From Echinarachnius parma (Eukaryota; Echinodermata; Echinoidea; Clypeasteroida; Echinarachniidae), in contig JBAMJV010011129.1 of the NCBI GenBank assembly GCA_037951105.1, forward strand, positions 25,529 through 89,528: DNA of 64,000 nt, in the 5' to 3' direction. Shown here piece after piece: positions 20,201 through 63,290 of this stretch; position 1 is the stretch's first letter; every line of letters starts with the position of its first letter. The notes below the pieces were generated by a model. That model had not been told where the DNA came from. It did not search any database and saw nothing but the letters and a program-made list of their open reading frames with translations. The translations under genes and the position numbers were made by a program.

Positions 20201-23200
20201 GGAGAGATCAACCAGCGCGCTCGCCGTCTCAAATTCATCGTGCAGCTTCTTCTTCTTCTTGGCCGATCCACACACTCGATAAATTCCAATCATTCTGATT
20301 CCACGCGACTCAATCTCGTGGATACACTTTTGGACAAGAATGGGTATTAACCTCGGCGACCCCTCCCGCCTCACAACAACGTCCAGAGGAACACCAAACA
20401 GACCCCTTCTGTCCAGCGAAGGGACTCTCTTGAGTGTTGCGTGGCGCTCTGTGAACACCATGGAAATGTAGAGGATTCCGCGAGGTTCCATGCGGATGGC
20501 TATATTATACACATCATCACGCGCCTTGCCGTGAATCAGAATTTGAGTTAACTTGACGAGTGACTTGTGGCAGAGCTTCTGCCTACCCTCAGGGTTCCAG
20601 CCGTAGTTGTAGACCATAATGCCAATGTCCTGAGCACGCTCAAGGTCAACTTCAAAGCGCTCATCCCAGCAGAACTCGTCGCGCCCCGTCACGGTGGCCG
20701 TCTGGGCCTTGTGGACGGCGTCGATCTCCACCACGCAGTAGAGGTCTCGCACCTGGCTGCGGGAGGTCAACGTGGGTGCCATCTTGCGACCACCCTGCAA
20801 ATGCAGGTTGACAATCCCGGAGAACGGGAGATGCCGGCTGTATGTCCTGGCACTCACCTCCCCCTTGATCTTGGTGAACTGGGTCACGTCGATGTCCAGG
20901 GGCTTGCTGTTGGATATCCTCCGAGACTTCTTGTCCGGCGACGGCTTGGGCACGTACTTGCTGGTACTGCCCGTGCTGTTCTCCTCCCCCAGCGACTCTG
21001 TGCTCTGCTCCGATTTCTTCCCCGCAAGGCTCGCCATGCTGATCTTGCGGCCGGGCGTCACGTTGCGCATGAGAGCCGCCAGTCGCTGCTGGCTGAAGAG
21101 GTCAAGGTAGCGTCCACCCTGGCCAGACTTCCTGGACCGACCACTGCCTCCATCCATATCAGCCGTCCGTTGCTCATCTGGTGTGGAGCGCTGTCTTGTC
21201 ATGTGTGCATCTGTGGGGGACGAGAGAAAAATTGAAAGGATATTAGTAAATAAGTCATGATTCACCTCTTTTTCATTTTAAAATATTTTGATTATACATT
21301 TGGATGCATTTTTTTTTTGGGGGGGGGGGTGGAGGTGGAGGTGGAGGTGGAGGTGCAAGCATCAACTACAGTACTTAGTACAAATTTGAGGACTTGTGAA
21401 CTATTGAATGGGTGTGTGTAAGTGGTTTGCATAATAATAGAGGAAATGGAATGGATACTTCTAATGTTCACACAGAAGTTACATAATTACAAGAGTATAT
21501 TTTGTCTAAGCTTCGAGCTTATGAAACTATGAGGAGATGTTTAGGGGAACTAACTTTTTTGTTATATTTATATCAAGTTTTGTTTCAATATAAAGCTAAC
21601 TAGCCATTTATCCAGTATGCAAGAATAAAGTTAGGTGACACCCCTGATTAACAATCACACAAATGCATTCTAAGTTTTTTAATTCAGCATGCATCATCAC
21701 ACAGGGTGTGGGGGTCAGTGATTTACTTTTGTCCCCGACACGATTCAAACTGCGAAGTGGTCGGCCCTAAAAACGTGTGACAGGAAATTGGTAATCGCTA
21801 CCTGTAATGACAGGATGCCTTTCGTCAAGGTGTCACACTCTGTGACTGTACAGACTCAACTGTGCCACCATGGCCAAAATAATAACAATATAGATACAAT
21901 GGATTAAGGGATCCATTAAAGTGGACCACCGTGCAACGTGTACATCCTAGACAATAGACTTGTCTTCTTCTGCAGACCCATGAACACATAATTTAGTATG
22001 GTGATGAATTTTCACATTATTATCATTTGACTGGAAGCCTACATGTATAAGCCAGTTCGTAATTACAAACTGCGCATGCGCGTAATTACGATCTAGCCTT
22101 CCGGGTTCTGTGGATGAACCACAACTTGATCTCAAATGAGGTTAGCAGACGACACTGTGTGTGTGTGTCAATGGACAATTTACTTCCTGGTATGACACCG
22201 GACACTTAATGAAGATATTTCTTCATAAATACTAATTTCATGACACTTTCAGTGCTAACTGGGCAAAAAGAACACCATCTGGCTAACATTTCCAACATAT
22301 TCGATCATTTCTGTCACATCGTACCGCAAGAAACTTAATTTGTATGAACATTTTGTAACCGGTACAGCGCGCGCGTACCACACGTTCAAGTCACCGGCTA
22401 GCTAACGGCATAGCTGCTCGTGAAGTCCCGCTATTTCGAAGCTGGTGCCTCGACGCTTTCAAAGACATCGATTAAAGTCTCCAAAAAAATTAAAAAGTGC
22501 TTAAATGTTGACCAAAAGATTTCAACAGACCATCGAGGGATAAGGACAAAGTGCAGTGAGTTAATACGAATTATTTAGTTGAGTTTAAAGACAAATAAAG
22601 CGTTGGGAAAAAAAGAGAAAAAAATGGGTACGAAAAAAAAAAAAAAAAAAAAAAAAAAGAGTACGAAAGCACTTTAGCTGACTTTCAAGTTCCTTTTACG
22701 GAGAAAGTCCTTCAACGCAGCAACAGACCACAACTTAATTTCGTCGATAGATATTTCTTGATCTTCATCCGCCATTGTAAAACAGCCAAATCACACACAA
22801 GAAACAGAGAAATACCGACATATCTTGCACTGTAAATGTCACATTTTCGATGAGGTCGATTCCACGTTCGCGAAGAAGGATTATGCATTGACAATCTACA
22901 CGTGTGCGTACTCGCGCGCTGCCGTGCATTTTTCCTTTCTAGGGCTCGCGCGCGCGGGCTGGGATCTGTGGTACAGTGACCTATGACCTGTGACGACTTC
23001 CGGGCTCCTTGCTCTAATTACGAACTGGCTTATTTGTCTGAACTTGTTGGCGGAAAGGACTAGCTATAATTACCTTTCATTTAGTTCCTTTTAACTTCAT
23101 AACATTTTTTTCAAAAAGTAATATTTTGAGACTTCAATCATACCAATAATATCTTTGTAAGATTCTTCTGGATGATACGGGATAGTCTCTTAGAAAAAAA

Positions 23201-50200: not shown

Positions 50201-53200
50201 ATTTTGTTATTTTATGGTCCATAAAATCTCCAACACAAAAAAACACACATGGGACTGAGCATAGCTAAGAAGTAGGATAACTTTTCAAATCGGGAAATGA
50301 AATCACTTAAATCTTTGTTATTTTACAAGCTAAAATAATTCCAAGTAGTCACAAATCTCTACCTTGTAAAAATGATTCCTTCTAATACCTTCAAAAATAT
50401 AAATAATGATCCGAAAGATGAAATTATTCCCCTTTATTGACGGTATCGCGGACGGTATCGCAAAGCAATATGAATGAATGTGAAAAGTTAGACATGTGTT
50501 TTGATAGGTCTTAGTATGCACACATACTCCCTCTGTGGATTGGTTGTTCTATGTTTATATTCTACATGTTGCAAAGGCTTCCAGGGGGTGTGTGGGAAAT
50601 TAAGAAAACAGCATAAGCATGCTTTTACTTTTAGTCATTACACACCTCTGGAAGTTGTTTAATTTTACCATGATTTATCATGCAAGAAGTAGATAATTCA
50701 AGGGAGAGTGTTCATATGAGGAAATAGCACATCTTATGTAGGCATAAATAAGGATTAATTCAACTAGCGCAAGTGCGCTTGCGACTTTTTATGTCCGTCC
50801 TTTTCATTTCTTGCAAATATTTAAATGACAATTAAAGTGTTTTTAAGAGGTGTCAAACTTGAGATTCATATTCCTTGATGTTGTCTTCTTATGGTTTAAA
50901 CATTTGGTGGCCCGATCGGGCCACCAAACTTTGGCATTTTCATGTTTTTACTGGCCCGACCGCAACTTTTACTGGCCCCGGGCCATCGGGCCTACGCCAA
51001 TTTCGAGCGTTGCTATAATAGTCATCTCTTTTGTGATCTGTAAACTTATTCTCTTCAAACATTCATCACTACATCATTCAATCATGGTTATAGAATGTTA
51101 CTACTTGTGTTTGGAAAGTAAGTTCTTGCAAAGACTTGCATGTCTTGTGAGTCTGTAAGTCTTGTAAGTCTTAAACTAAAGGGACTTAGTAACATTGTCC
51201 AAATCCTCAAAATTCCCTTTTGTTAAAAAGATATTTAGGATTGAAGTGCTCAGATGTTAAATTATATCCAATGGATCGCCGAAACTGTTTAAAAAGTGAG
51301 TGTAATGAGTTAGTGAATATCACTTTGCATTTTTGCTCATTACTTGGCCATATAATTCCATTTAACTTGAAATTTTCACACACCAAGTGGACATATCATA
51401 TACATTGTATCAACCATTCATCACTTTTTGCACATGCTAACGAAGTTACTAGATCCCTTTAAGTTGTTTAACAATGCACTGGAAATCAATATTACAAAAA
51501 AGTGAAAACAAAAAGAATGGGGTCACAATAAACATCATATCAATCATTTGCATTTTCATCAGAACTCATTTTCATTCTCTTGATCACAGTTCAATACTTC
51601 AATGTCAACTTCCTGGATCTTGGGTACAGTAAACCTTACAACAGAGCATGTTATAATATTAGTATGCAGTTTGGGTTTAATCCCTTGGACAGTCACTCAT
51701 TACAGACATCTATGTACAGTTGTGTGTAGCAGGATTTGCATCTAGACAATGCATGGGTGGCTGGTAGCAGAGACTTTTCAACACATGTGCATTGTCTTAC
51801 TACTCTGTGTTGTCTGCGCTACAGGGAATTGCGACATGGGGTGTAAATGGTCCATTTACAATATTGCAGATCTATGTGAAACTTACCATGGGGTGAAGAG
51901 GATGGGCGCTTCCGTTCCTTCTGTTCCCCTTCCCTCCAGTTTGATGCAACAATATTATCCGACGAGGAGGAATGCCTCATCTTTCCCGAAACCTCGACCG
52001 ACTTCACAGACATCGATAACGACTCCTCGTCATCCAGCAGAGAGCGGTCTGGAGGGATGATGGTGGAATAGGGTCGTTGCTGGTGCCGCTGTGATGGTGC
52101 GCTTCCCGGGACGGGGGCGCTGCTTCGCAGACCGTGGATATTTTGGAAAGAGGAGCTCAGCGTCTCCACAAAGTCCGCGTCATCGACGAAGACCACGGAA
52201 TCGCTGTCCTCTTCGCCATGGATGCTCGGGTCAAAAGATCCCGGGCGGCTCAAACGGGGAGGGCGCTTGAGATTCAACTCAGACTGAGATTCTGGCAATA
52301 TGCTCGGATCCGGAACTGGGCCATCGTCCAATATTCCTGTCGTAGCACTGCGGTTCCTAGAGAGGATTCGCTTCTCGTTGTTTTCTTGTTTGATTTTTGC
52401 GCATCTCAGCTCCGTCTTGGTCAACCTCACCCCACCATTGTTACCACCGGCAACTCGATTTGAGAGATTGTACCGGACAGTGATGTCAGTCCCATTTCTG
52501 ACAGATTCAATGGCTGCAGACTTGGCCGATACTCTTCTTTCGGGGTCTATGATACTACTGAGGGCAGCAGAGTGTCGGCCAGGACTTGCAGGAAATGATC
52601 CAGACTTATCGTACCTGGGAGAATGTACAAGTTGTGAGTTGGAATGTCGATATGAACTCCGCCCAATCTGCCTTGATTTCAATGTTATGAGAAGGCGGTT
52701 TGGTATCTGCATGACCATGTACACATCATCTAAAGTTTTGTAAGAAATGTCTACATTATTCACATACAATATTTCATCTCCTACACGAATCAGTCCAGAG
52801 TCTTCAACAAGTCCACCAAGCATCAGTCTGGAAACAAATATTCCATCTGCTCGGTCGATTCCGTCTCCTTCTCTGATGTAAAATCCCAGCGTTTCGCCTG
52901 GAATTTTCATGATTTCTACCGTCCGCAAGAGGAATGATCCTCCTTGTATTTCCCTCTCCTGTATCATACTTATTCTGGGCTTTCCACCATTCATTCTGCT
53001 ATCTAAATGTACAATGAGCCGGTCTAAATTTTCAAATTCTTCTGCCTTTGAGTTTGACATATCCGCGAAATGTTCCCTTTCCGCTGCCTGTATTGCCTGC
53101 ACTGTCTCGCTGGTGATGCCGCTGACATGCCGAAAGCCTGCCGGTCCGTCGATTTGTAACTCCCGGCTGTCTGTGCGAATTCCTTCCTCCGAACTCGAAT

Positions 53201-53285
53201 GACTGCGGGTCTGTTTTCGAACCACTCTCGCATTTGTTTGGATGTCAAACGAATTAATACTCGATTCTTGGCTTCGGTCAGACAT
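11004..53285 (-). CDS. syd-1: Syd-1-like RhoGAP with PDZ, C2 and RhoGAP domains (whole gene, 5 exons)
   Basis: Joined exons, in order of translation: 53285-51887, 21210-20167, 14244-14087, 12742-12469, 11230-11004. Every junction has GT-AG sites and matching phase (1, 1, 0, 1). The total is 3102 nt, or 1033 aa plus stop. Domain order is PDZ (about residues 121-205), low-complexity Ser-rich linker, C2 (about 593-721), RhoGAP (about 737-955) and an acidic tail. This order is that of C. elegans SYD-1 and Drosophila RhoGAP100F, presynaptic assembly proteins. Vertebrate SYDE1/2 lack the PDZ. The arginine finger is present (R778 in GIYRVCGS), as are LKDYLRELPEPL and NKMTPYNLAVCFGP, so GAP activity is plausible. 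The gene spans 42 kb, of which 30.7 kb is intron 1. Alternative exons in that intron cannot be excluded. Confidence 0.93.
11231..12468 (-). other. syd-1 intron 4, with four copies of GTCACGGACATTACA
   Basis: Donor GTAGGT at 12468-12463. CGTCACGGACATTACA occurs at 11423-11438, 11603-11618, 11792-11807 and 11816-11831, all in the same orientation. The rest is AT-rich with no other recognisable element. Confidence 0.75.
12469..12742 (-). CDS. syd-1: syd-1 exon 4: second half of RhoGAP
   Basis: Acceptor AGCAG at 12743, phase 0, starting ETVEYILDHLKNV. It contains the conserved NKMTPYNLAVCFGPVLM block near residues 885-900. A Gly/Arg-rich insert (GGGRGVRGSRGPPD) follows, then the closing helix EKHIELLSCLLEVWP. 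The exon is notably GC-rich in the insert. Donor GTAGGT, exit phase 1. Confidence 0.92.
12875..13403 (+). mobile_element. Palindromic mariner-like element (529 bp)
   Basis: TA flanks at 12873-12874 and 13404-13405. Ends are CAGGGTGGCCCATAAATAAC and its near inverse. The two arms (~230 bp each) are inverted copies over almost their whole length, including AATGAACCCTGACATGGTGT and TTTAGCCAATAGGTCAGTCA. The centre is unpaired and lacks a transposase. It is a non-autonomous foldback in syd-1 intron 3. Confidence 0.85.
13453..13562 (-). pseudogene. Decayed copy of the 5' end of syd-1 exon 4
   Basis: It matches 12690-12785 over the exon start, acceptor and upstream intron: the sequence around TGTTTCCTGCTTTGATCAAA parallels the real acceptor region, then ACAGGGTGGTATTTAGAGAT. 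The coding part carries several substitutions. The mariner-like palindrome sits between it and the real exon. Confidence 0.75.
14087..14244 (-). CDS. syd-1: syd-1 exon 3: RhoGAP middle (LKDYLRELPEPL)
   Basis: Acceptor TGCAG at 14249-14245, entry phase 1, exit phase 0 before GTGAGT. It encodes 52 residues plus a split Gly, starting VLKDYLRELPEPLMPP. The Lys and Arg of LKDYLREL are conserved RhoGAP residues. The upstream intron holds four decayed copies of its 5' half. Confidence 0.93.
14346..14445 (-). pseudogene. Pseudo-copy 1 of syd-1 exon 3 (5' half)
   Basis: It carries the acceptor region (TCTGCAAGG) at ~14431, the TGCTAAAGGACTATCTCC block and GTATGATAGAAAAGGGCAC. A one-base loss in the ELPEPL region shifts the frame. 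Confidence 0.82.
14525..14626 (-). pseudogene. Pseudo-copy 2 of syd-1 exon 3, frame still open
   Basis: Acceptor CTGCAG at ~14610. It reads GVLKDYLLELPELLMPLSMI in the same frame as the real exon, with R-to-L and P-to-L changes and no stop over about 24 codons. It lacks the exon's 3' half and a donor. Confidence 0.8.
14718..14832 (-). pseudogene. Pseudo-copy 3 of syd-1 exon 3
   Basis: It aligns to the same segment: acceptor CTGCAGGGGC at ~14814, then ACAGGACCATCTTCGC, then CCCAGTAAGGGGGAATAGGT. It is more diverged than copies 1 and 2, and the conserved leucines and prolines are partly lost. Confidence 0.65.
15015..15080 (-). pseudogene. Pseudo-copy 4 of syd-1 exon 3, internally deleted
   Basis: It reads VLKDFMPPSMMEKI in one frame. 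The residues between KDY and MPPSMME have been removed by an internal deletion, and the acceptor AG context is retained at ~15061. Confidence 0.75.
16690..17067 (+). mobile_element. TTAA-flanked MITE, family A copy 2
   Basis: TTAA at 16686-16689 and 17068-17071. Same termini as copy 1 and nearly collinear with it. Confidence 0.85.
17176..17291 (+). repeat. Homopolymer cluster: G30, then C and A runs
   Basis: An uninterrupted G run covers 17176-17205. A C run near 17257 passes directly into a run of A to 17290. Open frames across it (poly-Pro, poly-Phe) are artefacts. Confidence 0.9.
19143..19561 (+). mobile_element. TTAA-flanked MITE, family B copy 1
   Basis: TTAA at 19139-19142 and 19562-19565. 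Ends are AGGGGACCACCAGGCAAAGA and GGGTGGTGGTACCCT. An inverted near-full copy is at 38606-39022. Confidence 0.85.
19884..20104 (+). mobile_element. Short foldback element, ATATAGCAAAACCCTGCAT ends
   Basis: The left end ATATAGCAAAACCCTGCATT is mirrored by AATGCAGGGTTTTGCTATAT at the right. 221 bp, with no coding content. Confidence 0.75.
20167..21210 (-). CDS. syd-1: syd-1 exon 2: C2 domain and start of RhoGAP
   Basis: Acceptor CCCCAG at 21216-21211, entry phase 1 (split codon gives D467). A Ser/Arg/Lys-rich linker (residues 467-590) leads into a C2 domain, from RHLPFSGIVNLHLQGG to RGILYISMVF (about 591-720). The RhoGAP then begins with LFGVPLDVVVRREG (about 737). The arginine finger R778 is coded at 20278-20276. 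A five-Lys run follows (AKKKKKLHDEF), and the exon closes with DINIITG at a GTGGGT donor, phase 1. The exon is GC-rich relative to its flanks, and long antisense open frames over it are shadows. An in-frame Met (M470) near its start could serve a PDZ-less isoform, but no promoter evidence is visible. Confidence 0.94.
21301..21356 (+). repeat. G run plus (GGTGGA)n simple repeat
   Basis: A T/G homopolymer pair is followed by about four GTGGAG units, just upstream (minus sense) of exon 2's acceptor. Confidence 0.85.
22047..23033 (-). mobile_element. 987-bp TIR element retaining a SAP-like first exon
   Basis: Perfect 16-bp inner ends ATAAGCCAGTTCGTAATTA and its inverse TAATTACGAACTGGCTTAT (one end with an extra mismatch beyond). 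On the minus strand it begins with a CpG-rich, promoter-like stretch (22900-22960), then a 33-codon open frame (22775-22674), then a long homopolymer and non-coding sequence. No transposase is seen. I cannot define the target duplication, so the superfamily is open. It is inserted within a family B MITE. Confidence 0.75.
22674..22775 (-). CDS. 33-aa SAP-like N-terminal fragment inside the TIR element
   Basis: ATG at 22775 to TAA at 22674. After an acidic start (MADEDQEISIDEIK) it reads LWSVAALKDFLRKRNLKVS, which fits the first helix and turn of a SAP DNA-binding domain. It stops exactly where the domain's Gly and second helix should follow. It looks like the first exon of a larger transposon gene, cut by an internal deletion or at a lost donor. 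The reading is short, so the match rests on pattern alone. Confidence 0.5.
   Translation of the reverse strand: MADEDQEISIDEIKLWSVAALKDFLRKRNLKVS
23087..23645 (+). repeat. Dispersed repeat family G
   Basis: It shares AACTTCATAA.ATTTTTT.CAAAA, GAGACTTCAATC.TACCAA and TTCTTCTGGATGATAC with 15420-15530 and 32380-32480, and AACCCATTTCATTCTT with 32500. The termini are not resolved. Confidence 0.5.
23700..25040. other. Intron 1 stretch without recognisable element
   Basis: Low-information AT-rich sequence. There is a duplicated GACTGGCCAATTGTCT-type pair near 24070 and a GGCTCGGCACT duplication at 25018-25040. Confidence 0.45.
25048..25330 (+). mobile_element. Diverged family B MITE copy (left part)
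   Basis: TTAA at 25044-25047. It then aligns in order with 38606-38880: AATAAATGAAAG, AGTAATCCATTC, TTTCCAGAAAAA, CATCATTCTAAA, ACGTACGCGTG. The right end is not identifiable. Confidence 0.6.
26270..26490 (+). repeat. GGTGGCCC-type dispersed repeat
   Basis: It contains TTTTGGTGGCCTGAAACATG, TTTGGTGGCCCAGTCGGGC and TGGTGGCACTGGGCCAGCAA. Similar blocks recur at 10730, 37505, 40540, 41750, 48740-48930, 49800-50000 and 50905-51000. Confidence 0.55.
26551..26938 (+). mobile_element. TTAA-flanked MITE, family A copy 3
   Basis: TTAA at 26547-26550 and 26939-26942. Same termini and body as the other family A copies, with a small duplication of ATATCAC near 26773. Confidence 0.85.
26945..28260. other. 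Intron 1 stretch, no gene recognised
   Basis: Mostly AT-rich. It includes a CTTTGCTCTA.GGTCCA duplication at 27620-27663 and a GAACCTGGTGGGTCCTGTAT motif at 28122 that resembles the inverse of 10650. Confidence 0.45.
28580..29037 (+). mobile_element. TIR element with GTGTTCACACACAA ends
   Basis: The left end CGTGTTCACACACAACAAAT, then TTTCATC, is mirrored by GATGAAATTTTTGTGTGTGA then ACACG. Internal copies of TTCACACACA and of dyads such as AATCATGATT repeat several times. No coding capacity and no clear target duplication. Confidence 0.65.
29719..30431 (+). repeat. 55-bp minisatellite, 13 units
   Basis: Units start at 29720 and every 55 bp after. They begin AGCATGGCAATGAACACTAG. Two variants occur (GAACACT and GCACACT), the twelfth unit has a 2-bp CT insertion, and late units share a GGCTACATC variant. 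Confidence 0.95.
30432..30497 (+). mobile_element. Retroposed SINE/LINE tail in the last minisatellite unit
   Basis: A short insert ends GATGCGCTATATAAAAAC, then GGTTTATTATTGTTATT, a tail type seen in animal SINEs. It is flanked by ATCACT on both sides, and the minisatellite unit resumes with GAAT. Confidence 0.6.
30560..30855 (+). repeat. CpG-rich MITE-like sequence
   Basis: TATTCGCGGTGCATTAATTA, CGCGAATATTAAAACCCGC and CGCGAAATATTAATCGCGCG, then ACGTTTACAGTA. The composition is unlike the flanks and the right end resembles a TIR, but I cannot define the left end. Confidence 0.35.
31378..31812 (+). repeat. 48-bp minisatellite, about 9 units, open on both strands
   Basis: The unit begins GTCTTTGGTAAGTGTCTATC. 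48 is a multiple of three, so the array is open in the minus strand (16-residue repeat TTIDTTNTLPDRHLPK) and the plus strand. Units differ by a C/G and a C/T variant only. I do not call a gene: the flanking parts of the frames run into a retroposed tail and homopolymers. Confidence 0.9.
31861..32072 (+). mobile_element. 5'-truncated LINE-like retroposed tail
   Basis: AACTTTGTCCAATT flanks both sides (31847-31860 and 32073-32086) as a 14-bp target duplication. The insert ends with AATAAA near 32040 and a ~20-nt A tail. It has no coding sequence. Confidence 0.8.
32145..32517 (+). mobile_element. TIR copy of dispersed family G
   Basis: The left block TGGTAACAGAAGAATGAAAT is mirrored by CATTTCATTCTTCTGTTACC at 32498-32517. 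The inside holds ATCATTCAGAA and TTCTGAATGAT in opposite orientations. Confidence 0.6.
32520..34790. other. Intron 1 stretch, repeats with GTAGCCCCCGAAAA blocks
   Basis: 33540-33600 and 34135-34200 both carry TGCAGGC.A.CTTGAAAAGTAGCCC or similar, like 16300-16400. 34550-34760 is rich in short ACATGTA-type palindromes. No exon is recognisable. Confidence 0.4.
34900..35580 (+). repeat. Degenerate ~180-bp tandem repeat with G runs
   Basis: Units share AGATAAGATGAGA..GAAATA, a T then G homopolymer, TATTTTTCAAGCTTGTCT, ATGTATGCTACACAGTACAC and TTCATGAATTGTTTC.AGGG. Two good copies start near 34912 and 35088. Two decayed copies follow near 35315 and 35490. Confidence 0.7.
35710..35730 (+). repeat. 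G21 homopolymer at the edge of a family F element
   Basis: 21 consecutive G directly abut the left terminus of the foldback element at 35729. Confidence 0.9.
35729..36026 (+). mobile_element. Foldback element, family F copy 2
   Basis: The left end AAAGATCCTAAGTTGAACTT is mirrored by AAGTCCAACTTAGAGTTAAG, then TTCAAC..GTGAAACACCCCC. Same body as 2345-2638 (CATCAAAAACATG, GCAAGTATTTT). Confidence 0.75.
36874..37494 (+). mobile_element. TTAA-flanked MITE, family E
   Basis: TTAA at 36870-36873 and 37495-37498. Ends are AGGGACTGTCCGCCTTTT and AAAAGGCGGACAGTCCCT, perfectly inverted. 621 bp with no transposase. Confidence 0.85.
38158..38601 (-). mobile_element. TTAA-flanked MITE, family C copy 2
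   Basis: TTAA at 38154-38157 and 38602-38605. Ends are AGGTATATATATGCGTGGGT and TAACCCACGCATATATGCCT. Inverted relative to 1528-2013. Its right TTAA is also the left TTAA of the next element. Confidence 0.85.
38606..39022 (-). mobile_element. TTAA-flanked MITE, family B copy 2
   Basis: TTAA at 38602-38605 (shared with family C copy 2) and 39023-39026. Ends are AGGGTACCACCACCC and GCCTGGTGGTCCCCT. Inverted relative to 19143-19561. Confidence 0.87.
39030..40787. other. Intron 1 stretch, no gene recognised
   Basis: AT-rich. There is a GGCCCA..GGCAA block near 40543 and a GTTGCCCATACAGGCAAC palindrome near 40660, like the dispersed GGCCCG family. Confidence 0.4.
40792..41177 (+). mobile_element. 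TTAA-flanked foldback with palindromic tandem core
   Basis: TTAA at 40788-40791 and 41178-41181. Arms GGCCTGGTCACACAGGACAC and its inverse extend about 90 bp (GCAGTACGCATTGGTAC, GGCAAGCCGTTTT). The core (40885-41095) is a run of alternating TTCTTGATATCAAGAA palindromes. Confidence 0.85.
41182..43590. other. Intron 1 stretch, no gene recognised
   Basis: Nothing beyond short open frames and one GGTGGCCATTGGTACCAGGG block near 41751. Confidence 0.4.
43913..44262 (+). mobile_element. Nested MITE, AAATCTCCGTGT..GGCGCAC ends
   Basis: The left end CCGTAAATCTCCGTGTGTAC, then GGCGCAC, is mirrored by GTGCGCCTTATACACGGAGA, then TTTAGGGT. Inner GTGTATAAGGCGCACCCCC repeats occur near both ends. Confidence 0.65.
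44568..45925 (+). repeat. 323-bp tandem array, four units plus a partial
   Basis: TGATTCCTGCCATGTTTGGT starts at 44568, 44891, 45214 and 45537, with a variant at 45860, so the period is exactly 323. Units 2 and 3 are nearly identical. The 109-residue open frames read across each unit are repeat by-products. Confidence 0.95.
45930..45992 (+). repeat. (CGGACGACGGACGA)n simple repeat
   Basis: ACGGACGACGGACGACGCAC and similar units, immediately after the 323-bp array. Confidence 0.9.
46045..48735. other. Intron 1 stretch, no gene recognised
   Basis: Mostly AT-rich. 47150-47310 is CpG-rich (GATGCGCGGCGCCATCTTGC, CGCACGGTGCGTGATGCACG) and sits between TTTAAAGG and CCTTTAAG. This could be another TTAA-type element, but the termini do not match well. 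Confidence 0.4.
48740..51010 (+). repeat. Cluster of GGTGGCCCG/CGGGCCA repeat blocks
   Basis: At 48745-48930 (TTACTGGCCCAG, GGGCCAGCAAGCCAG), 49797-49875 (GCTGGTGGCCCGGTCGGGCC), 49985-50005 and 50905-51005 (GGTGGCCCGATCGGGCCACC, GGCCCCGGGCCATCGGGCC). The spaces between are AT-rich with no gene. Confidence 0.55.
51180..51458 (+). mobile_element. Family A MITE copy 4, internally deleted
   Basis: The left flank is CTAA and the right flank TTAA (51459-51462). Same termini as the other family A copies. About 100 bp shorter (279 against ~380). Confidence 0.8.
51887..53285 (-). CDS. syd-1: syd-1 exon 1: start codon, PDZ domain and Ser-rich linker
   Basis: Starts at ATG 53285 (MSDRSQESSINSFDIQT), with an in-frame TGA about 30 nt upstream that supports this start if the exon is not spliced further 5'. 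The PDZ is at about residues 121-205: LRTVEIMKIPGETLGFYIRE with carboxylate loop TLGF, then VGDEILYVNNVDI and the closing LLITLKSR. A Ser/Arg/Pro-rich linker of about 260 residues follows to donor GTAAGT at 51886, phase 1. Intron 1 is 30.7 kb. PDZ domains in Syd-1 proteins bind partner C-termini at presynaptic sites (known for the family). The partner here is unknown. Confidence 0.94.
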
Positions 53286-55994: not shown

Positions 55995-56254
55995 GACTAC
56001 TTTGAAAAAAATCTAAATAGGTTTTTAAATAGTTGTTGATGATATCTCTATTGAATCATTATTTTAACAAAACATCAAATGCACAATTTTGTATGAAAAA
56101 TGGCTAAAACCAATGAGTTTTTAGAGAGCGCCCTCTTGAGTTGTAACGGCTCTTTTTTTTAATGATAACAGGGTTTTTACTTAGTCGTTTATAAGTGGGT
56201 ACCTTTCCAGCATGGTGGAGTTATAACTATTTGTTTGTACCGCAATGGTGCAGG
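55995..56254 (+). mobile_element. Family D MITE copy 3, left part (split by BEL/Pao)
   Basis: From AAAATCTAAATAGGTTTTTA it matches the second half of copy 1 (TAGTTGTTGAT, GCGCCCTCTT, AGCATGGTGGAGTTATAACT) up to GCAATGGTGCAGG. The left end is missing. The remainder resumes at 63242. Confidence 0.8.
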
Positions 56255-57740
56255 TGTTGCGGCAGAATTACACTTATATTTTAAAGTGGTAATAGTTTGT
56301 GTATTATGTGATACATATTATGTTCCCTGTATAAATACATTATACTCCCTGTATACTTGTAGTATACAGCCTGATTAATACAGCCCTATAGTTTAATACA
56401 GTGCATAAACAAAGGGGTCTCTGTGCTGGCCAGGGGGGCAAACATAGATAAGCAGGAAGTTCTCCCTGCCTGGATGTTTACTTTAGTGATAACATTGACC
56501 ATGCCTTCTATGTCAGTGGGGGTAGTAATATGTACATAGCCCGTTGAGCATCACTTCTACAGAGAAAGTCAGTGGGAAGAGTCTGTTGTTTGAAGCTGGT
56601 TGAAAATAGTTGGTTGAAAACAGTTGGTAAGTCGATATATTTCACTTTTTGTACATTATTGTAGTATAATAAGAAACCACTGTAACTTTAGAATATTATG
56701 CCATACACTATGTTAAATGTGCACTCTATAAGAAAGAGTGAGAGACAGAGAAGTTGTGAGAGATGAAGTGGTATATTCACGTAATAATTATGTCATTATG
56801 TACAGCACAGTATAGTATAGTCGAGCACTATAGTTGTAGTAAATTGATGTTTGTTATGCCACATATAATGAAGTTAGTATTCCTATTAATTATAAGGACA
56901 GAATTTGCATTAGTTGATGAATATTGAGTAGATGCAAAATGATTAGTTATATTCAAACAAGGTGCATTTGTTAATGCATATATAAGTAAATCTCTTAGAA
57001 GAGAAGATATTGCAGAATATCGAGAATATTGTGTTATCATTAATCTTGGTAAACTTTGTATTATAAGTTGTTTGGTAGTATTGATTATAGTTATATACTA
57101 CACGCATTAGCACACAAGTTTAGTTACATACAGTTGTATGATGTTAATATATTTAGTTGATAATTAATGCTCTATGACACGAGTTGGTATTTTGGAAACA
57201 CTAAATTGAAGGAACTCATTTGAGTAGTTAATATTCATAAATGTTTGGTGAATTAGGTTCAATGATTATATGTTCATGTAACAGTTATTGTTAGGAACTC
57301 ACATATAAAGGTTAATTAGTCAGAACGTTGATTATAGGAATTATGGTTTGTGTGTACAGTTAATTACTTGAACATATAACTTATTATTGTTTTTACTGAT
57401 TGTCCTTATTTCAGTAAACCGTCAAATGATATACGGACGTCGTCGTCAAATACGGACGTCGTAGGTCGGCGTCAAAGGAAATATACGTCAAACGTCATCT
57501 ATAATAGCGTCGGCTATATCGTTAGCTATCGTCATCGTAGTTGATATTGTTGTCATCGTCGTCGTCGATGAGTGTTCGTCAAGACATAATGTTGTCGTTG
57601 TCGATATCGTGCGTCGAATAAAAGGACTTTGATTTGTATATATACACAACACATTCATCTTGAACTGGTCGCTTTGTTTGTTGTTGTGTGCTGACGTGTT
57701 TGCACTGGAAACATAACCCCTTATGTAGTTTACAGCTACA
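56255..57740 (+). repeat. 5' LTR of the BEL/Pao element
   Basis: Starts TGTTGCGGCAGAATTACACT and ends GTAGTTTACAGCTACA. AATAAA at 57617-57622 and TATATATA near 57637 lie in the 3' part, and about eighteen CGTC words crowd 57419-57615. G at 56459 corresponds to T at 61960 in the 3' LTR. Confidence 0.95.
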
Positions 57741-57778
57741 TAAATAGTTTACAACTTGTTATAAATCTTCGAATTATA

Positions 57779-60700
57779 ATGGATCAGACGGTGAAAGACC
57801 AGACGGTTCAGGACCAGGCTGCAGCTCTGAAGGAGTCATGTAACAGTTACCTCGGTGACCTCGGAAGGAGGTACAATCAGTTGGAGCAACTATTGTCAGA
57901 TCGAGATAACTGCACGGTGGTCGTCAAGAGATACGACCAATTGAAGGGTATATTTTCCCTTTATGAAGAACAGTACATGGAGTACGTCACCATGTTGGAT
58001 GGTGATTTGAAAATGGACGCGAGCAAAGTGTTCGCAAGTCAGCGACAGAACTTGGAGGAGTTCAATAAAAGAATTACGGCGTGGCTCAGTGACTCTGAGT
58101 CTAAGGAGGTGTCATTCACGGCGATCACGGCACCAGTAGACGACGACCAGCGTTCCGAGTATGCAGCGAGCACATCGTCTTCGAGTTCGAGAAGCAGCGC
58201 AAGGCTGAGAGAAGCTAAGCTAAAGCAGAAAATAGCACGGCAACGAATCGAGCAGCTTAAAGAGCAACAAAGACTTGAGCGTGCTAGGCGTGAACTCGAC
58301 GAACGGCTCGTCGCGCTCCAGATCGAGGGCGAAATGAAGCATGCTGAACTGGAGGTGGAGATGCTGGAGGAGGAGCTGATCGAAGATCGAGTTTCTGCTG
58401 GTGGCCGAGATCTGACAGCTTTCCAAGTTCAAACGGGTGGTGAAGACTCCCGTGGCCGTACGGATGATCTGAGTGGTGGTCATGGTGAACGGATCCGTGA
58501 CCAAGATCAGATCAAGAAAAATGGACAGATAAGTAGTGACAGGGCTGCAAGAACTGTAAGTAGTAACAAGAATAAAAACAGTCCTGTTGCATGTGGTGAT
58601 GTTGATACACAAAGTAGAATGAATGTGGGCATGAATGTAAACATGGGTAGCAATGTACTTGTAAAGGCAAGTAGCCAAAATTCTACTGATAACGGCAATT
58701 CCGTATCTGATTTGTGTAATATGTTGATGGTTTCCATGAACATGCCGAAGCCAGAGTTGCTTAGGTTCGACGGTGATCCAATCAAGTATTGTAGTTTTGT
58801 GAATAGCTTTGATGTTAATGTTGCATGCAAGGTCAATGATGACAAAACTAGATTGATGTATTTGCTGTCTTATTGTGAGGGTAGGGCCAAGGAGTGTATC
58901 GAGTGTTGCGTACTGCTACCCTCAGATGAAGGGTACAGTAGGGCTAGGAAGATTCTAGCCAATCAGTTCGGTCAACCTCACGTGATATCACATGCTAGGC
59001 TTAAGAAAGTCCTTAATCGCCCCCAAATTAGGCCCAATGACGGCCACGGCTTGCGCGAGCTAGCAAGGGAAATGAGCGCGTGCCAAATAACTCTTGAGCA
59101 GATGGGACACACTGCAGATATGAATTCCAGTGACAGCCTGCTGAAGATCCAGGGCATACTTCCGGTGCAGCTGCAGGCTAGATGGGCCGATCGAGCAGAA
59201 GGTCTGCTCGTGCAGGGCATCAAACCAAGCTTTCGTGACATGGCAAGCTTCATCGACCGGCAAGCCAAAGTCGCCAACAACCTATATGGTAAAAACGTAG
59301 GTCAGAGTGTGAAACCTACTAATGTGAAGCCTCCAGAACGTCCAGAGAGGCCCATCAACAATGGCGTAAGAGCCACTACACTGTCAACAGCAGGTAAGGG
59401 AGAAAGGCGGAAGTGTCCTTGTTGTGCGGAACGTCATGAACTGACGGAATGTGAGCAGTTCAAGGGCAAACCACAGAAGGAACGTTTTAGGCTAGCGCGC
59501 AGGAATCGCCTGTGCGACAACTGCCTTAAACCGTCCCACATGGCCAAGGACTGTTGGCAGAAGTCTGTGTGTGGCAGCAATGGCTGCGAGAGAAGGCACC
59601 ATGCCCTTCTTCATTTCGAGCGTGTGGAGAATCTCACCGGGGCCGGTGAAAGTAGAAACGACGTAAAAGATGCGGGTACCCAAGAGAAACCACTCGTTAC
59701 AAGTCTTTCGGCGAGCATCAGTTCAAAGGTATGCCTTAGGGTGCTGCCTGTCAAGGTACGGAGTAACGGCAGAGAGGTAGAGACTTGGGCTCTGCTTGAC
59801 AGTGGAAGCGACGTCTCGCTCTGCGACCAAAGGCTTGCCACAAAACTAGGCCTGAAAGGAAATAAGAAACAGTTCAAACTGTCAACTGTGAACGACGAAA
59901 ACAAGAAGGTAAGTGGGATGGAGCTATCGATGTCGGTCTGCGGACTTGACGAGAGTGAATCCATCAGTTTGGAGGCAGTATGGACTGTCGACAAACTACC
60001 AATCTCTACTGAGAGCATACCGAATCCGAGCGACATCCATCAATGGTCGCACCTCCAAGATGTTTCCATTCCCCAAATCGACGACAAGGAGGTTATGCTT
60101 CTCATAGGTGGAGACACGCCGGAGGCCTTCTGGGTGAAGGAGGATAGACGCGGAGGGAAGGGAGAACCTTACGCCATGCGGTCTGTCCTTGGGTGGACCC
60201 TGATAGGACCAACCTCACGACATGAAAGAAGGTCACAGTTCTCATCCAACTTCACACGCCTGCACTATGACCTTCTGCAGGAACAAGCTGAAAGGTTCGG
60301 AAAACAAGACTTCGGAGATAATTGTAATGAGGTAGGTAAGGGTCTGTCAGTAGAAGATCGAAGGGCAGAGGCGACTATCAGGAAGACGGATGGCAACTAT
60401 GAACTAGGGCTTCCATGGCATCATTCAGAAGTTGACGCGAAGTCAAATCCGGCGGATGAGGGTCCCAGAGGCATGCCAGTCAGTGAGTCGACCGGCGATG
60501 CAAGGCAGGTCAAGGGACCACAATTCCTGAGGGAGAAACCCGAGAGATGGCCCCAAGCCGTGCATCTGCCTCAAAGCCTACCTGAAGCCAATGAAGATCC
60601 TGAGGTAAAGAAGACCATGAGGAACAACTGCGTTACGAGCAGTGGTAAGGTAGACGACCTTATCGATCGTTACTCCTCGTGGTCAAGGCTCAAGAAAGGA

Positions 60701-61168
60701 GTTGCCTGGATCCTCCGATATGTAAGGTACCTTCGTTCAAAGGCAAAGTCAGAAGACGGCAAGGAGGTTAGACAGAAGACATTGTCGCTCCAGGAATACC
60801 AGGATGCTGAAAGAGCAATCCTTATGTGTGTACAAATGAAGGAGTTCCCAGAGGAACTTAGCAAACGTGACAAGAAAGCTGACAAGAAGAAAGGGACTGG
60901 CTTAACAAAGCTCAACCCTATTGTCGTGGACGGAGTGCTTCGTGTTGGTGGACGACTGACCAATGCACCTGTGCCATTCGACACAAAACAGCCACACTGC
61001 CTACCACCCGGTGTCTTCAAGAAGGAAGATAGGTATTGTCGGCGAAGGTGGCGCCAAACCCAGTATCCGGCAGATCTGTTCTGGAAGCGTTGGCGTTGGG
61101 AATACCGACCATCGCTCCACCATCGCTACAAGAAAGACAGGAGTGGTTGCAACCACAGCGGAATTTAA
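57779..61168 (+). CDS. BEL/Pao Gag-protease polyprotein with pol deletions
   Basis: 1129 aa from ATG 57779, 38 nt after the 5' LTR. Residues 140-200 form a charged coiled coil. The DUF1759-type Gag core starts near 327 (ELLRFDGDPIKYCSF). Zinc-finger region: CPCC near 545, then CCHC knuckle CDNCLKPSHMAKDC near 578, then a Cys/His pair. The aspartic protease has active site LLDSGSDVSLC near 672 and extends to VLGWTLIGPT near 810. The pre-RT block GNYELGLPWHH (~877) then jumps directly to KSNPADEGPRG, the segment that follows RNase H. Near 1085 the pre-integrase sequence ends at PHCLPPGVF, joining the region after the integrase core. Both joins keep the frame. The last ~18 residues are out of frame after an 11-bp duplication. 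It acts as structural and protease protein only; polymerase functions are missing. Confidence 0.92.
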   Translation: MDQTVKDQTVQDQAAALKESCNSYLGDLGRRYNQLEQLLSDRDNCTVVVKRYDQLKGIFSLYEEQYMEYVTMLDGDLKMDASKVFASQRQNLEEFNKRITAWLSDSESKEVSFTAITAPVDDDQRSEYAASTSSSSSRSSARLREAKLKQKIARQRIEQLKEQQRLERARRELDERLVALQIEGEMKHAELEVEMLEEELIEDRVSAGGRDLTAFQVQTGGEDSRGRTDDLSGGHGERIRDQDQIKKNGQISSDRAARTVSSNKNKNSPVACGDVDTQSRMNVGMNVNMGSNVLVKASSQNSTDNGNSVSDLCNMLMVSMNMPKPELLRFDGDPIKYCSFVNSFDVNVACKVNDDKTRLMYLLSYCEGRAKECIECCVLLPSDEGYSRARKILANQFGQPHVISHARLKKVLNRPQIRPNDGHGLRELAREMSACQITLEQMGHTADMNSSDSLLKIQGILPVQLQARWADRAEGLLVQGIKPSFRDMASFIDRQAKVANNLYGKNVGQSVKPTNVKPPERPERPINNGVRATTLSTAGKGERRKCPCCAERHELTECEQFKGKPQKERFRLARRNRLCDNCLKPSHMAKDCWQKSVCGSNGCERRHHALLHFERVENLTGAGESRNDVKDAGTQEKPLVTSLSASISSKVCLRVLPVKVRSNGREVETWALLDSGSDVSLCDQRLATKLGLKGNKKQFKLSTVNDENKKVSGMELSMSVCGLDESESISLEAVWTVDKLPISTESIPNPSDIHQWSHLQDVSIPQIDDKEVMLLIGGDTPEAFWVKEDRRGGKGEPYAMRSVLGWTLIGPTSRHERRSQFSSNFTRLHYDLLQEQAERFGKQDFGDNCNEVGKGLSVEDRRAEATIRKTDGNYELGLPWHHSEVDAKSNPADEGPRGMPVSESTGDARQVKGPQFLREKPERWPQAVHLPQSLPEANEDPEVKKTMRNNCVTSSGKVDDLIDRYSSWSRLKKGVAWILRYVRYLRSKAKSEDGKEVRQKTLSLQEYQDAERAILMCVQMKEFPEELSKRDKKADKKKGTGLTKLNPIVVDGVLRVGGRLTNAPVPFDTKQPHCLPPGVFKKEDRYCRRRWRQTQYPADLFWKRWRWEYRPSLHHRYKKDRSGCNHSGI

Positions 61169-61425
61169 AGATTGACGATCTAGTCCTCATGGTAGATGAC
61201 TATGCACCTAGAGGACAATGGTCCATTGGCAAGGTTGTAGAGACCTATCCTGGAAGAGATGGTAAGGTGCGCCAGGTTGAAGTGAAGGCCGGAACGAAGT
61301 TCTATAAGCGACCGATAGCCAAGCTATGTCTCCTGGAACAGTGTGGACCAAATGATCACGAAAATGAGGCACGAACTCATTTTCCATTGCACATGCGCAG
61401 TTATTATAAGTTTTTGTTTATTTAG
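61120..61425 (+). pseudogene. Frameshifted C-terminal pol segment (DUF5641-like)
   Basis: A second frame carries LKIDDLVLMVDDYAPRGQWS and on to KLCLLE, the conserved region after the BEL integrase. It is separated from the main frame by a tandem 11-bp duplication (61109-61119 and 61120-61130, one base different). The frame ends at TAG-region stop 61425. Confidence 0.85.
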
Positions 61426-61429
61426 GCGT

Positions 61430-61755
61430 AATGGAATAAGGTGCTTTCGCTTAAGTCGCATGTGGTATCACATGAATTGATAGGAGTGATAAATAGGTCT
61501 ATCAGGTTCATGTTAATAGTGTAAAGATGGTTGCGATTCAAGGTTGCAAGTACAAATTTGTTGTATATGTTTCGTCATTATTTTGTAACGTAAATTAGAA
61601 TGAATTTATGTTTGGTACATAACATTCTTAATTAGGATTATTTGAAGAGAGTCTTGAAATTGATTAGTATACAGGTGTAGGTGTATTGATTTGATCGTAC
61701 CTGCCGCTTTTTAAGTGAAATTAACTTGTTGGTGTTCGTTAATTTGGGGCCGGTA
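61430..61755 (+). other. BEL/Pao 3' untranslated region
   Basis: AT-rich, with GGGGCCGG shortly before the 3' LTR as the only candidate polypurine tract (weak). Confidence 0.6.
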
Positions 61756-63241
61756 TGTTGCGGCAGAATTACACTTATATTTTAAAGTGGTAATAGTTTG
61801 TGTATTATGTGATACATATTATGTTCCCTGTATAAATACATTATACTCCCTGTATACTTGTAGTATACAGCCTGATTAATACAGCCCTATAGTTTAATAC
61901 AGTGCATAAACAAAGGGGTCTCTGTGCTGGCCAGGGGGGCAAACATAGATAAGCAGGAATTTCTCCCTGCCTGGATGTTTACTTTAGTGATAACATTGAC
62001 CATGCCTTCTATGTCAGTGGGGGTAGTAATATGTACATAGCCCGTTGAGCATCACTTCTACAGAGAAAGTCAGTGGGAAGAGTCTGTTGTTTGAAGCTGG
62101 TTGAAAATAGTTGGTTGAAAACAGTTGGTAAGTCGATATATTTCACTTTTTGTACATTATTGTAGTATAATAAGAAACCACTGTAACTTTAGAATATTAT
62201 GCCATACACTATGTTAAATGTGCACTCTATAAGAAAGAGTGAGAGACAGAGAAGTTGTGAGAGATGAAGTGGTATATTCACGTAATAATTATGTCATTAT
62301 GTACAGCACAGTATAGTATAGTCGAGCACTATAGTTGTAGTAAATTGATGTTTGTTATGCCACATATAATGAAGTTAGTATTCCTATTAATTATAAGGAC
62401 AGAATTTGCATTAGTTGATGAATATTGAGTAGATGCAAAATGATTAGTTATATTCAAACAAGGTGCATTTGTTAATGCATATATAAGTAAATCTCTTAGA
62501 AGAGAAGATATTGCAGAATATCGAGAATATTGTGTTATCATTAATCTTGGTAAACTTTGTATTATAAGTTGTTTGGTAGTATTGATTATAGTTATATACT
62601 ACACGCATTAGCACACAAGTTTAGTTACATACAGTTGTATGATGTTAATATATTTAGTTGATAATTAATGCTCTATGACACGAGTTGGTATTTTGGAAAC
62701 ACTAAATTGAAGGAACTCATTTGAGTAGTTAATATTCATAAATGTTTGGTGAATTAGGTTCAATGATTATATGTTCATGTAACAGTTATTGTTAGGAACT
62801 CACATATAAAGGTTAATTAGTCAGAACGTTGATTATAGGAATTATGGTTTGTGTGTACAGTTAATTACTTGAACATATAACTTATTATTGTTTTTACTGA
62901 TTGTCCTTATTTCAGTAAACCGTCAAATGATATACGGACGTCGTCGTCAAATACGGACGTCGTAGGTCGGCGTCAAAGGAAATATACGTCAAACGTCATC
63001 TATAATAGCGTCGGCTATATCGTTAGCTATCGTCATCGTAGTTGATATTGTTGTCATCGTCGTCGTCGATGAGTGTTCGTCAAGACATAATGTTGTCGTT
63101 GTCGATATCGTGCGTCGAATAAAAGGACTTTGATTTGTATATATACACAACACATTCATCTTGAACTGGTCGCTTTGTTTGTTGTTGTGTGCTGACGTGT
63201 TTGCACTGGAAACATAACCCCTTATGTAGTTTACAGCTACA
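61756..63241 (+). repeat. 3' LTR of the BEL/Pao element
   Basis: Collinear with the 5' LTR at an offset of exactly 5501 bp, with one substitution seen (T61960) and no indel. Followed by the target duplication GCAGG. Confidence 0.95.
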
Positions 63242-63290
63242 GCAGGTTTTGGTTATTAAAATTAAGTTTGACCAAAACTCAACTATCCCT
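63242..63290 (+). mobile_element. Family D MITE copy 3, right part
   Basis: It continues GCAGGTTTTGGTTATTAAAA to ACCAAAACTCAACTATCCCT, with TTAA at 63291-63294. This completes the copy begun before 56254. Confidence 0.85.

What the first reader, a model, noticed from the sequence alone, without database searches (positions are those of the whole stretch)
56255..63241. Recently moved BEL/Pao element that kept Gag and protease but lost RT, RNase H and integrase core in frame
The LTRs differ by one base in 1486 in my reading, and the 5-bp target duplication is exact, so insertion is recent. Yet the polyprotein lacks the RT/RNase H block (join near 60425-60445) and the integrase core (join near 61005-61020), and both joins preserve one 1129-aa frame. 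Preserved frame after two large losses suggests the shortened protein was kept while the element moved using enzymes from a relative. Gag-retaining non-autonomous elements are known in plants for other LTR groups. A Gag-protease BEL/Pao lineage would be less familiar.
Basis: partly seen in the sequence, partly recalled or inferred. Interest (0 to 1): 0.75.

Follow-up and report, generated by a model that had tools for sequence, protein, structure and literature searches.

The report
Gag-protease-only BEL/Pao retrotransposon family
A jumping element of an animal genome has lost its copying and inserting enzymes but kept its shell protein and protease; it has spread to several sites, apparently borrowing the enzymes of intact relatives, and at least two other element families in the same genome did the same.

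Summary
LTRs 56255-57740 and 61756-63241 differ at 1 of 1486 positions, with an exact 5-bp duplication. The 1129-aa frame holds DUF1759 Gag, zinc knuckles and protease, but no RT, RNase H or integrase core. Correction: a short duplication shifts the frame inside DUF5641.

Both joins recur at three other sites (C13990, C3915, C1375); C2380 shares join 1 but lost the integrase core by its own deletion. All five have distinct 5-bp duplications and an open Gag-protease frame. A full-length relative, C463 (1983-aa frame), has LTRs 99.7% identical to ours although its CA-NC-protease part differs by 14%: a mosaic expected from co-packaging and template switching.

Two further BEL/Pao lineages (B, C) show independent Gag-protease derivatives beside full-length relatives with matching LTRs; D and G are candidates. 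Gag-protease is constrained (pN/pS 0.18 versus 0.41 downstream, p=0.005), but recombination confounds this. New variant of a known kind; mobilisation in trans is inferred, not shown.

The parts
56250..56254 (.). 5-bp target site duplication, left copy (GCAGG)
56255..57740 (+). 5' LTR, 1486 bp, TG..CA, TATAAATA at 56330
57741..57760 (+). conserved stretch after the 5' LTR where a primer binding site is expected; no TGG start (inspection)
57779..61168 (+). 1129-aa open frame: Gag, protease, pre-RT, post-RNase H linker, start of DUF5641
58766..59128 (+). DUF1759 (Gag, capsid region), aa 330-450
59414..59554 (+). Cys/His zinc motifs; CCHC knuckle CX2CX4HX4C at 59513-59554 (motif name recalled)
59750..59917 (+). 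retroviral-type aspartic protease, DSG at 59798
60431..60436 (+). join 1 (6 positions matched by both sides of C463): RT and RNase H block missing, about 1461 bp more in C463
60437..60987 (+). remnant between the end of RNase H and the integrase zinc-binding domain
60988..60995 (+). join 2: integrase zinc-binding domain and core missing, about 788 bp more in C463
61043..61425 (+). DUF5641 remnant, split over two frames by an 11-bp tandem duplication near 61105-61126
61740..61755 (+). G-rich stretch before the 3' LTR, possible polypurine tract (weak)
61756..63241 (+). 3' LTR, one mismatch to the 5' LTR
63242..63246 (.). 5-bp target site duplication, right copy (GCAGG)

Best explanation
The window holds one recent copy of a non-autonomous BEL/Pao lineage. 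Shown: its members kept LTRs, leader, Gag and protease, lost RT/RNase H through one shared in-frame deletion and the integrase core through a second, and inserted at separate sites with their own target duplications. Shown: a full-length relative with almost the same LTRs is in the genome, and the shortened copies are mosaics with sequence like it. Inferred: the RNA is made from the LTR; its own Gag-protease and the relative's Gag-Pol build shared particles; the relative's RT and integrase copy and insert it; template switching between co-packaged RNAs makes the mosaics and keeps the LTRs alike. Inferred: the joins arose as short-homology template switches during reverse transcription. At least three BEL/Pao lineages of this genome (A, B, C), with different joins, made such derivatives.
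For: Family A copies and joins. The Gag DNA search scored 7 of 7 candidates: 5 shortened copies, C463 full-length, C4428 broken. Distinct 5-bp target duplications in 6 of 6 copies examined at both ends (5 shortened + C463); LTR-pair mismatches 1/1486 (window), 1/1500 (C13990), 0/1464 (C1375) and 0/1486 (C463); the pairs of C3915 and C2380 are interrupted and were not compared. C463: RVT_1, Peptidase_A17, Integrase_H2C2, rve, 1983-aa open frame. Mosaic: window versus C463 0.27% in the 5' LTR, 13.97% in CA-NC-PR, while versus C13990 1.01% and 2.66%; ends-versus-middle Fisher p below 2e-26 in 4 of 4 triplets. Family B: 5 shortened copies with one shared, different join; LTR pairs 100% identical with own target duplications in the 3 copies whose LTRs were held whole; full-length C12525, C12282, C471. 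Family C: at least 10 copies with LTR matches on both sides, 8 of them with a 919-945-aa frame, and full-length C4799 with 95-96% LTR matches and a 1956-aa frame. Constraint: pN/pS 0.176 in Gag-protease versus 0.405 in the remnant, Fisher p 0.0047; derived singletons 0.218 versus 0.588, p 0.027.
Against: No expression, particle or mobilisation data. Gag segments are exchanged with full-length elements (C3915 and C463 differ at 2 of 800 positions in one segment; in B the integrase remnant is identical in 5 of 5 copies while Gag differs by up to 6%), so low pN/pS in Gag need not come from selection in the shortened lineage. The remnant also stays open in 5 of 5 family A copies, and among four of them its polymorphism is slightly below neutral (p 0.048). 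Gag RNA could be kept only as a packaging signal. Only one intact full-length family A relative was found, and its middle is not that of the parent.
Confidence: 0.8

Rival explanations
1. The Gag-protease frame is a passenger. Movement needs only LTRs and a packaging signal that happens to lie in the gag sequence; intact Gag reflects recent birth and repeated recombination with full-length copies, not use of the protein.
For: Gag diversity exceeds remnant diversity and some Gag segments match full-length elements. The leader and Gag N-terminus appear exchanged even between families A and B (95.8% DNA identity to the window over 909 positions in C1133, where CA/NC/PR are about 50-60% identical in protein).
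Against: Derived singletons in Gag-protease, absent from C463, are still constrained; three lineages with different joins all kept Gag and the protease core; DSG intact in 5 of 5 family A copies.
Confidence: 0.35
2. Deletions after insertion at this locus only, with no family.
For: None found.
Against: Both joins in 4 copies and join 1 in 5, at sites with different target duplications.
Confidence: 0.01
3. Assembly collapse across two gaps.
For: Draft assembly of 14790 contigs.
Against: Same joins on separate contigs with different flanks and internal divergence of a few percent; C2380 with a different integrase junction.
Confidence: 0.01
4. The joins are splice junctions: a spliced Gag-protease messenger was reverse transcribed and inserted.
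For: Single-frame elements can make a Gag-only spliced RNA (BARE, PMC3735527 abstract).
Against: Read by eye against C463, neither join leaves a GT..AG intron; both lie in short shared stretches; C2380 used a third junction. C463 is not the direct parent, so this is not airtight.
Confidence: 0.04
5. Division of labour: the shortened elements supply extra Gag-protease to full-length relatives whose single frame makes Gag and Pol one to one, so both gain.
For: The full-length frames are single; Gag-protease is kept and constrained in the shortened forms; among the copies found, shortened outnumber full-length in A (5 to 1), B (5 to 3) and C (at least 10 to 1) (capped lists).
Against: No test of benefit to the full-length element; parasitism fits the same counts.
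Confidence: 0.15

Closest known systems
Bel-21_AG, non-autonomous Pao-Bel family of Anopheles gambiae (PMC3212995, passages and section 11 read)
   Same: BEL/Pao, three copies, identical LTRs within elements, one long ORF (927 aa), called non-autonomous.
   Different: No conserved domain recognised in its ORF, LTRs unlike those of its nearest families, dN/dS reported neutral. Here Gag and protease are identified, LTR-sharing full-length relatives are found and the frame is constrained.
rooA of Drosophila erecta (BEL/Pao; PMC3087523, passages)
   Same: Short elements thought to spread passively through intact helpers; similar LTRs despite diverse coding regions are discussed.
   Different: Those are about 25% of full length, some with stop codons; here a full Gag-protease frame is kept.
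TR-GAG elements of plants (Arabidopsis AT5TE33540, PMC8704663, passages)
   Same: LTR element with a Gag frame and no enzymes; moved in ddm1; full-length relative known.
   Different: Plant Copia, Gag only; here animal BEL/Pao with Gag plus protease plus pol remnants.
Cattle ERVK[2-1-LTR] competent/defective pair (PMC10924933, passages)
   Same: Defective elements outnumber competent ones; recombination between them read as co-packaging.
   Different: The defective type lacks functional genes; vertebrate ERV.
BARE1/BARE2 of barley (PMC3735527, abstract)
   Same: Parasitic subfamily packaged with a helper.
   Different: Mirror image: BARE2 cannot make Gag; here Pol enzymes are lost and Gag kept.
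CM-gag of Culex pipiens (title only, in the reference list of PMC3286476)
   Same: Reported as a repeated element with only a gag gene.
   Different: Class and mobility not seen here.

Membership tests
BEL/Pao (Belpaoviridae) | Gag with DUF1759 and zinc knuckle, aspartic protease next to it, DUF5641 at the C-end (association with BEL/Pao recalled) | tested here: met
BEL/Pao (Belpaoviridae) | RT, RNase H, integrase after protease in Pol | tested here: not met
   Absent in the window element; present in its LTR-sharing relative C463. So it is a defective derivative of BEL/Pao, not a complete member.
BEL/Pao (Belpaoviridae) | LTRs of 0.2-1.2 kb (PMC8742986, whole text) | tested here: not met
   1486 bp; full-length C463 1486 bp, C12525 1444 bp. 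Slightly outside the stated range.
BEL/Pao (Belpaoviridae) | 18-nt primer site matching the 3' end of tRNA-Arg or tRNA-Gly (PMC8742986) | tested here: inconclusive
   Stretch after the LTR does not begin with TGG (inspection); no tRNA in the window to compare.
BEL/Pao (Belpaoviridae) | RT falls in the BEL/Pao clade on a tree | not tested
   Only the Pfam Peptidase_A17 ('Pao retrotransposon peptidase') and RVT_1 matches of the relatives.
Non-autonomous LTR element moved in trans | Several copies with the same lesion, each with its own target duplication | tested here: met
Non-autonomous LTR element moved in trans | Full-length relative with matching LTRs in the genome | tested here: met
Non-autonomous LTR element moved in trans | Enzymes of the relative shown to move it | not testable with these tools
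   needs an experiment
TR-GAG | single ORF that encodes Gag alone | tested here: not met
   The frame also holds protease and pol remnants

The most novel reading that the evidence does not exclude
BEL/Pao lineages of this genome have repeatedly split into a quasi-bipartite system: a full-length element that supplies enzymes and shorter Gag-protease elements that supply shell protein in excess, held together by shared LTRs and frequent recombination. This would answer for these elements how a single-frame element gets more Gag than Pol.
Probability: 0.15. Interest if true: 0.85.

Novelty: new variant of a known kind. Interest (0 to 1): 0.62.

Why it matters
Non-autonomous LTR elements are usually either stripped of coding capacity or, in plants, Gag-only. 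Here an animal genome holds several BEL/Pao lineages that, with different joins, lost the enzymes yet kept Gag and protease and multiplied next to full-length relatives with matching LTRs. That gives matched shortened and full-length pairs in which one can ask whether a defective element uses its own Gag, whether it harms or helps its helper, and how recombination keeps the LTRs alike. It also warns that LTR identity dates the insertion, not the coding region.

Tried and rejected
Rejected: deletion after insertion and assembly collapse; splicing origin of the joins (by eye: no GT..AG against C463); counting every short DUF1759 frame as a Gag-protease element: the 980-1005-aa group was sampled in C6784 (1 of 4 copies) and holds RT and integrase with the frame broken inside RT, so it was dropped; C11659 groups with family C. 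Families D (structure read in 1 of 4 copies, C2285) and G (1 of 2, C2813) are only candidates: Gag-protease without RT in the 4.2 and 4.0 kb fetched, LTRs not checked. The first plan, to read selection from low pN/pS in Gag, was weakened once family B showed an identical integrase remnant with diverse Gag; counts by site and derived singletons were then made. LTRs that were not counted as family A elements: C5100 (a solo LTR with ATAAT on both sides), C3579, C12683 and C12745 (no matching 5-bp flanks). Copy counts are lower bounds: 40 of 68 candidates scored, 40 of 100, 87 of 296, 150 of 194; no family B shortened copy appears in the list.

Full report
What is there. The element lies at 56255-63241 on the plus strand. 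The LTRs are 1486 bp, differ at one position (56459), begin TG and end CA, and are flanked by GCAGG on both sides. One 1129-aa frame runs from 57779 to 61168. Pfam finds DUF1759 (aa 330-450), an aspartic protease (aa 658-713) and the first third of DUF5641 (aa 1089-1119), and no RT, Peptidase_A17 or integrase model. The protease DSG motif is at 59798 and a CCHC knuckle at 59513. The rest of DUF5641 is in another frame (61036-61425), because of an 11-bp tandem duplication near 61105-61126.

The genome test. Join 1 searched as DNA gave 8 matches: 5 contiguous across the join (the window itself, C2380 100%, C13990 and C3915 99%, C1375 89%), two halves in C463 about 1.46 kb apart, and one left half in C4428. 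The LTR searched as DNA gave 52 matches (40 of 68 candidates scored), among them pairs in C463, C13990 and C1375, and interrupted LTRs in C3915 and C2380. Gag DNA gave exactly 7 loci: the same five, C463 and C4428 (7 of 7 candidates scored). The direct search for join 2 did not complete; that C13990, C3915 and C1375 also share join 2 is read from their loci.

Each copy inserted on its own. The 5-bp duplications are GCAGG (window), CTACT (C13990), GTTTG (C3915), CTTTG (C1375), ATATA (C2380) and CCATG (C463). LTR pairs differ by 1/1486, 1/1500 and 0/1464 in the window, C13990 and C1375, and 0/1486 in C463; those of C3915 and C2380 are interrupted by other DNA and were not compared. So the joins were made before these insertions, and the dated insertions are recent. 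I give no age in years because the host and its mutation rate are unknown.

The full-length relative. C463:415945-425201 carries LTRs 99.7% identical to ours, one open frame of 1983 aa, and RVT_1, Peptidase_A17, Integrase_H2C2 and rve in the stretches that span the two blocks missing from the window element. C4428 has a frameshift and a stop in the protease/pre-RT stretch and no RT match beyond 53 aa in the DNA read, up to C4428:287500. Family A thus shows five shortened, one full-length and one broken copy in this assembly.

Mosaics. The window and C463 differ by 0.27% in the 5' LTR, 1.8% in the leader and early gag, 14% in CA-NC-protease, 8.8% in the remnant and 3.0% in the 3' untranslated part. 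Versus C13990 the figures are 1.0, 6.0, 2.7, 1.1 and 4.6%. Sites where the window sides with C463 concentrate at the ends and those where it sides with another shortened copy in the middle, in 4 of 4 triplets (Fisher p 3e-35 to 2e-26). C3915 matches C463 at 798 of 800 positions in one gag segment. This is what template switching between co-packaged RNAs gives; the same reasoning was used for cattle ERVK (PMC10924933, passages) and high rates of recombination within a family were reported for Onsen (PMC5668417, abstract). Gene conversion in the chromosome could contribute and is not excluded.

The joins. Read against C463, join 1 shares six positions on both sides (one mismatch) and join 2 about three; by eye neither is a GT..AG intron. 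C2380 shares join 1 but has its own in-frame integrase junction at a 7-base repeat, lacks the 11-bp duplication, and after the junction is closer to C463 (4.4%) than to its sisters (10-12%). The integrase core was therefore most likely lost twice on the join 1 background. C463 is not the direct parent, so the exact ancestral junctions are not known.

Other lineages did the same. Family B (C1133, C5311, C9472 and two copies in C3579) has Gag CA/NC/protease about 50-60% identical in amino acids to family A, LTRs 82-89% alike over part of their length, one shared join from the end of protease to the middle of integrase with a short filler, the integrase remnant in another frame, and a 1061-aa open frame in the two copies held whole; no indel or stop was seen in 5 of 5. 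LTR pairs are 100% identical in the 3 copies whose LTRs were held whole, each with its own 5-bp duplication; the two C3579 copies were compared only in part (1 mismatch and 1 gap in 732 columns, 0 in 507). Full-length relatives are C12525 (2004-aa frame, identical LTR pair), C471 (1970 aa; LTR pair with differences) and C12282 (1970 aa; LTR pair not checked). Family C has Gag-protease plus about 90 aa of the start of the RT region, upstream of the RVT_1 match, and no further RT or integrase match in the 4.3 kb fetched; at least 10 copies have LTR matches on both sides, 8 of these with frames of 919-945 aa and 2 with about 385 aa, and the full-length C4799 has the same LTR type at 95-96% and a 1956-aa frame holding DUF1759 and RT. 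D (4 copies of 930 aa; Gag-protease joined to DUF5641 in frame, read in C2285) and G (893 and 918 aa; read in C2813) are candidates. Another group of short frames, sampled in C6784, is not of this kind.

Is the Gag-protease used? In five family A copies variable sites in Gag-protease number 143 silent and 90 amino-acid changing (pN/pS 0.176); in the remnant 20 and 31 (0.405); Fisher p 0.0047. Derived singletons give 50/39 versus 8/18 (p 0.027); the remnant's derived singletons do not differ from neutral (p 0.22), though remnant polymorphism in four copies is borderline (p 0.048). Against this, Gag diversity is larger than remnant diversity and partly shared with full-length elements, so some constraint may be imported, and these tests treat sites as independent. 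My reading: Gag-protease is more likely used than not (about 55%), not proven.

How it most likely works. LTR-driven RNA serves as messenger for Gag-protease and as genome. Particles form with Gag from both kinds of element and Pol from the full-length one; shared LTR, leader and early gag let both RNAs enter. RT and integrase act in trans. All of this paragraph is inference. Whether the shortened elements burden or help the helper is open. BARE, also a single frame, makes a spliced RNA for Gag alone (PMC3735527, abstract); a Gag-protease element could do the same at the genome level, which is my boldest reading.

Comparison. Bel-21_AG (PMC3212995, section 11 read) and rooA (PMC3087523, passages) show that non-autonomous BEL/Pao families have been proposed before; TR-GAG (PMC8704663, passages) shows Gag-only plant elements that move. 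The BEL/Pao survey PMC3118150 holds neither 'non-autonomous' nor 'nonautonomous' in its main text. A Gag-protease BEL/Pao family with LTR-sharing full-length relatives did not come up in the listings of paper searches. Verdict: a real, well-supported new variant of a known kind.

Noticed in passing
57741-57760 and loci L011, L013, L017, L030, L032, L035, L037: The stretch after the 5' LTR (about GTTTACAACTTGTT) is conserved between families A and B but does not start with TGG, so priming may not use an ordinary tRNA 3' end.
   Followed up: partly
window 20129-21265 and 51819-53285, minus strand: SYDE-type C2/RhoGAP and PDZ exons, probably one SYD-1/SYDE-like gene; the element sits about 3 kb beyond the PDZ exon on the gene's 5' side.
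   Followed up: no
C2380 (L002:2040-2140): Independent in-frame integrase junction at a 7-base repeat on the join 1 background.
   Followed up: yes
C11659:3464-14260: Three family C LTRs spaced 4886 bp with two internal regions between them: a tandem LTR-internal-LTR-internal-LTR array.
   Followed up: no
C3665, C5789:477469, C6784, C8252: Four DUF1759 matches with frames of 980-1005 aa; in C6784 RT and integrase are present but the frame breaks inside RT. Whether all four share the break was not checked.
   Followed up: partly
C945:28864-30363, C5374, C10935: BEL/Pao matches inside unusually long open frames (5949, 2736 and 2361 aa).
   Followed up: no
C1133 (L030) versus window: Leader and early gag 95.8% identical between families A and B although CA/NC/protease are only about 50-60% identical in protein: a module exchanged between families, perhaps holding the packaging signal.
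   Followed up: partly
control genomes: The DUF1759 model rang above its cut-off in one of 14 control genomes, Sulfolobus acidocaldarius; unexplained.
   Followed up: no
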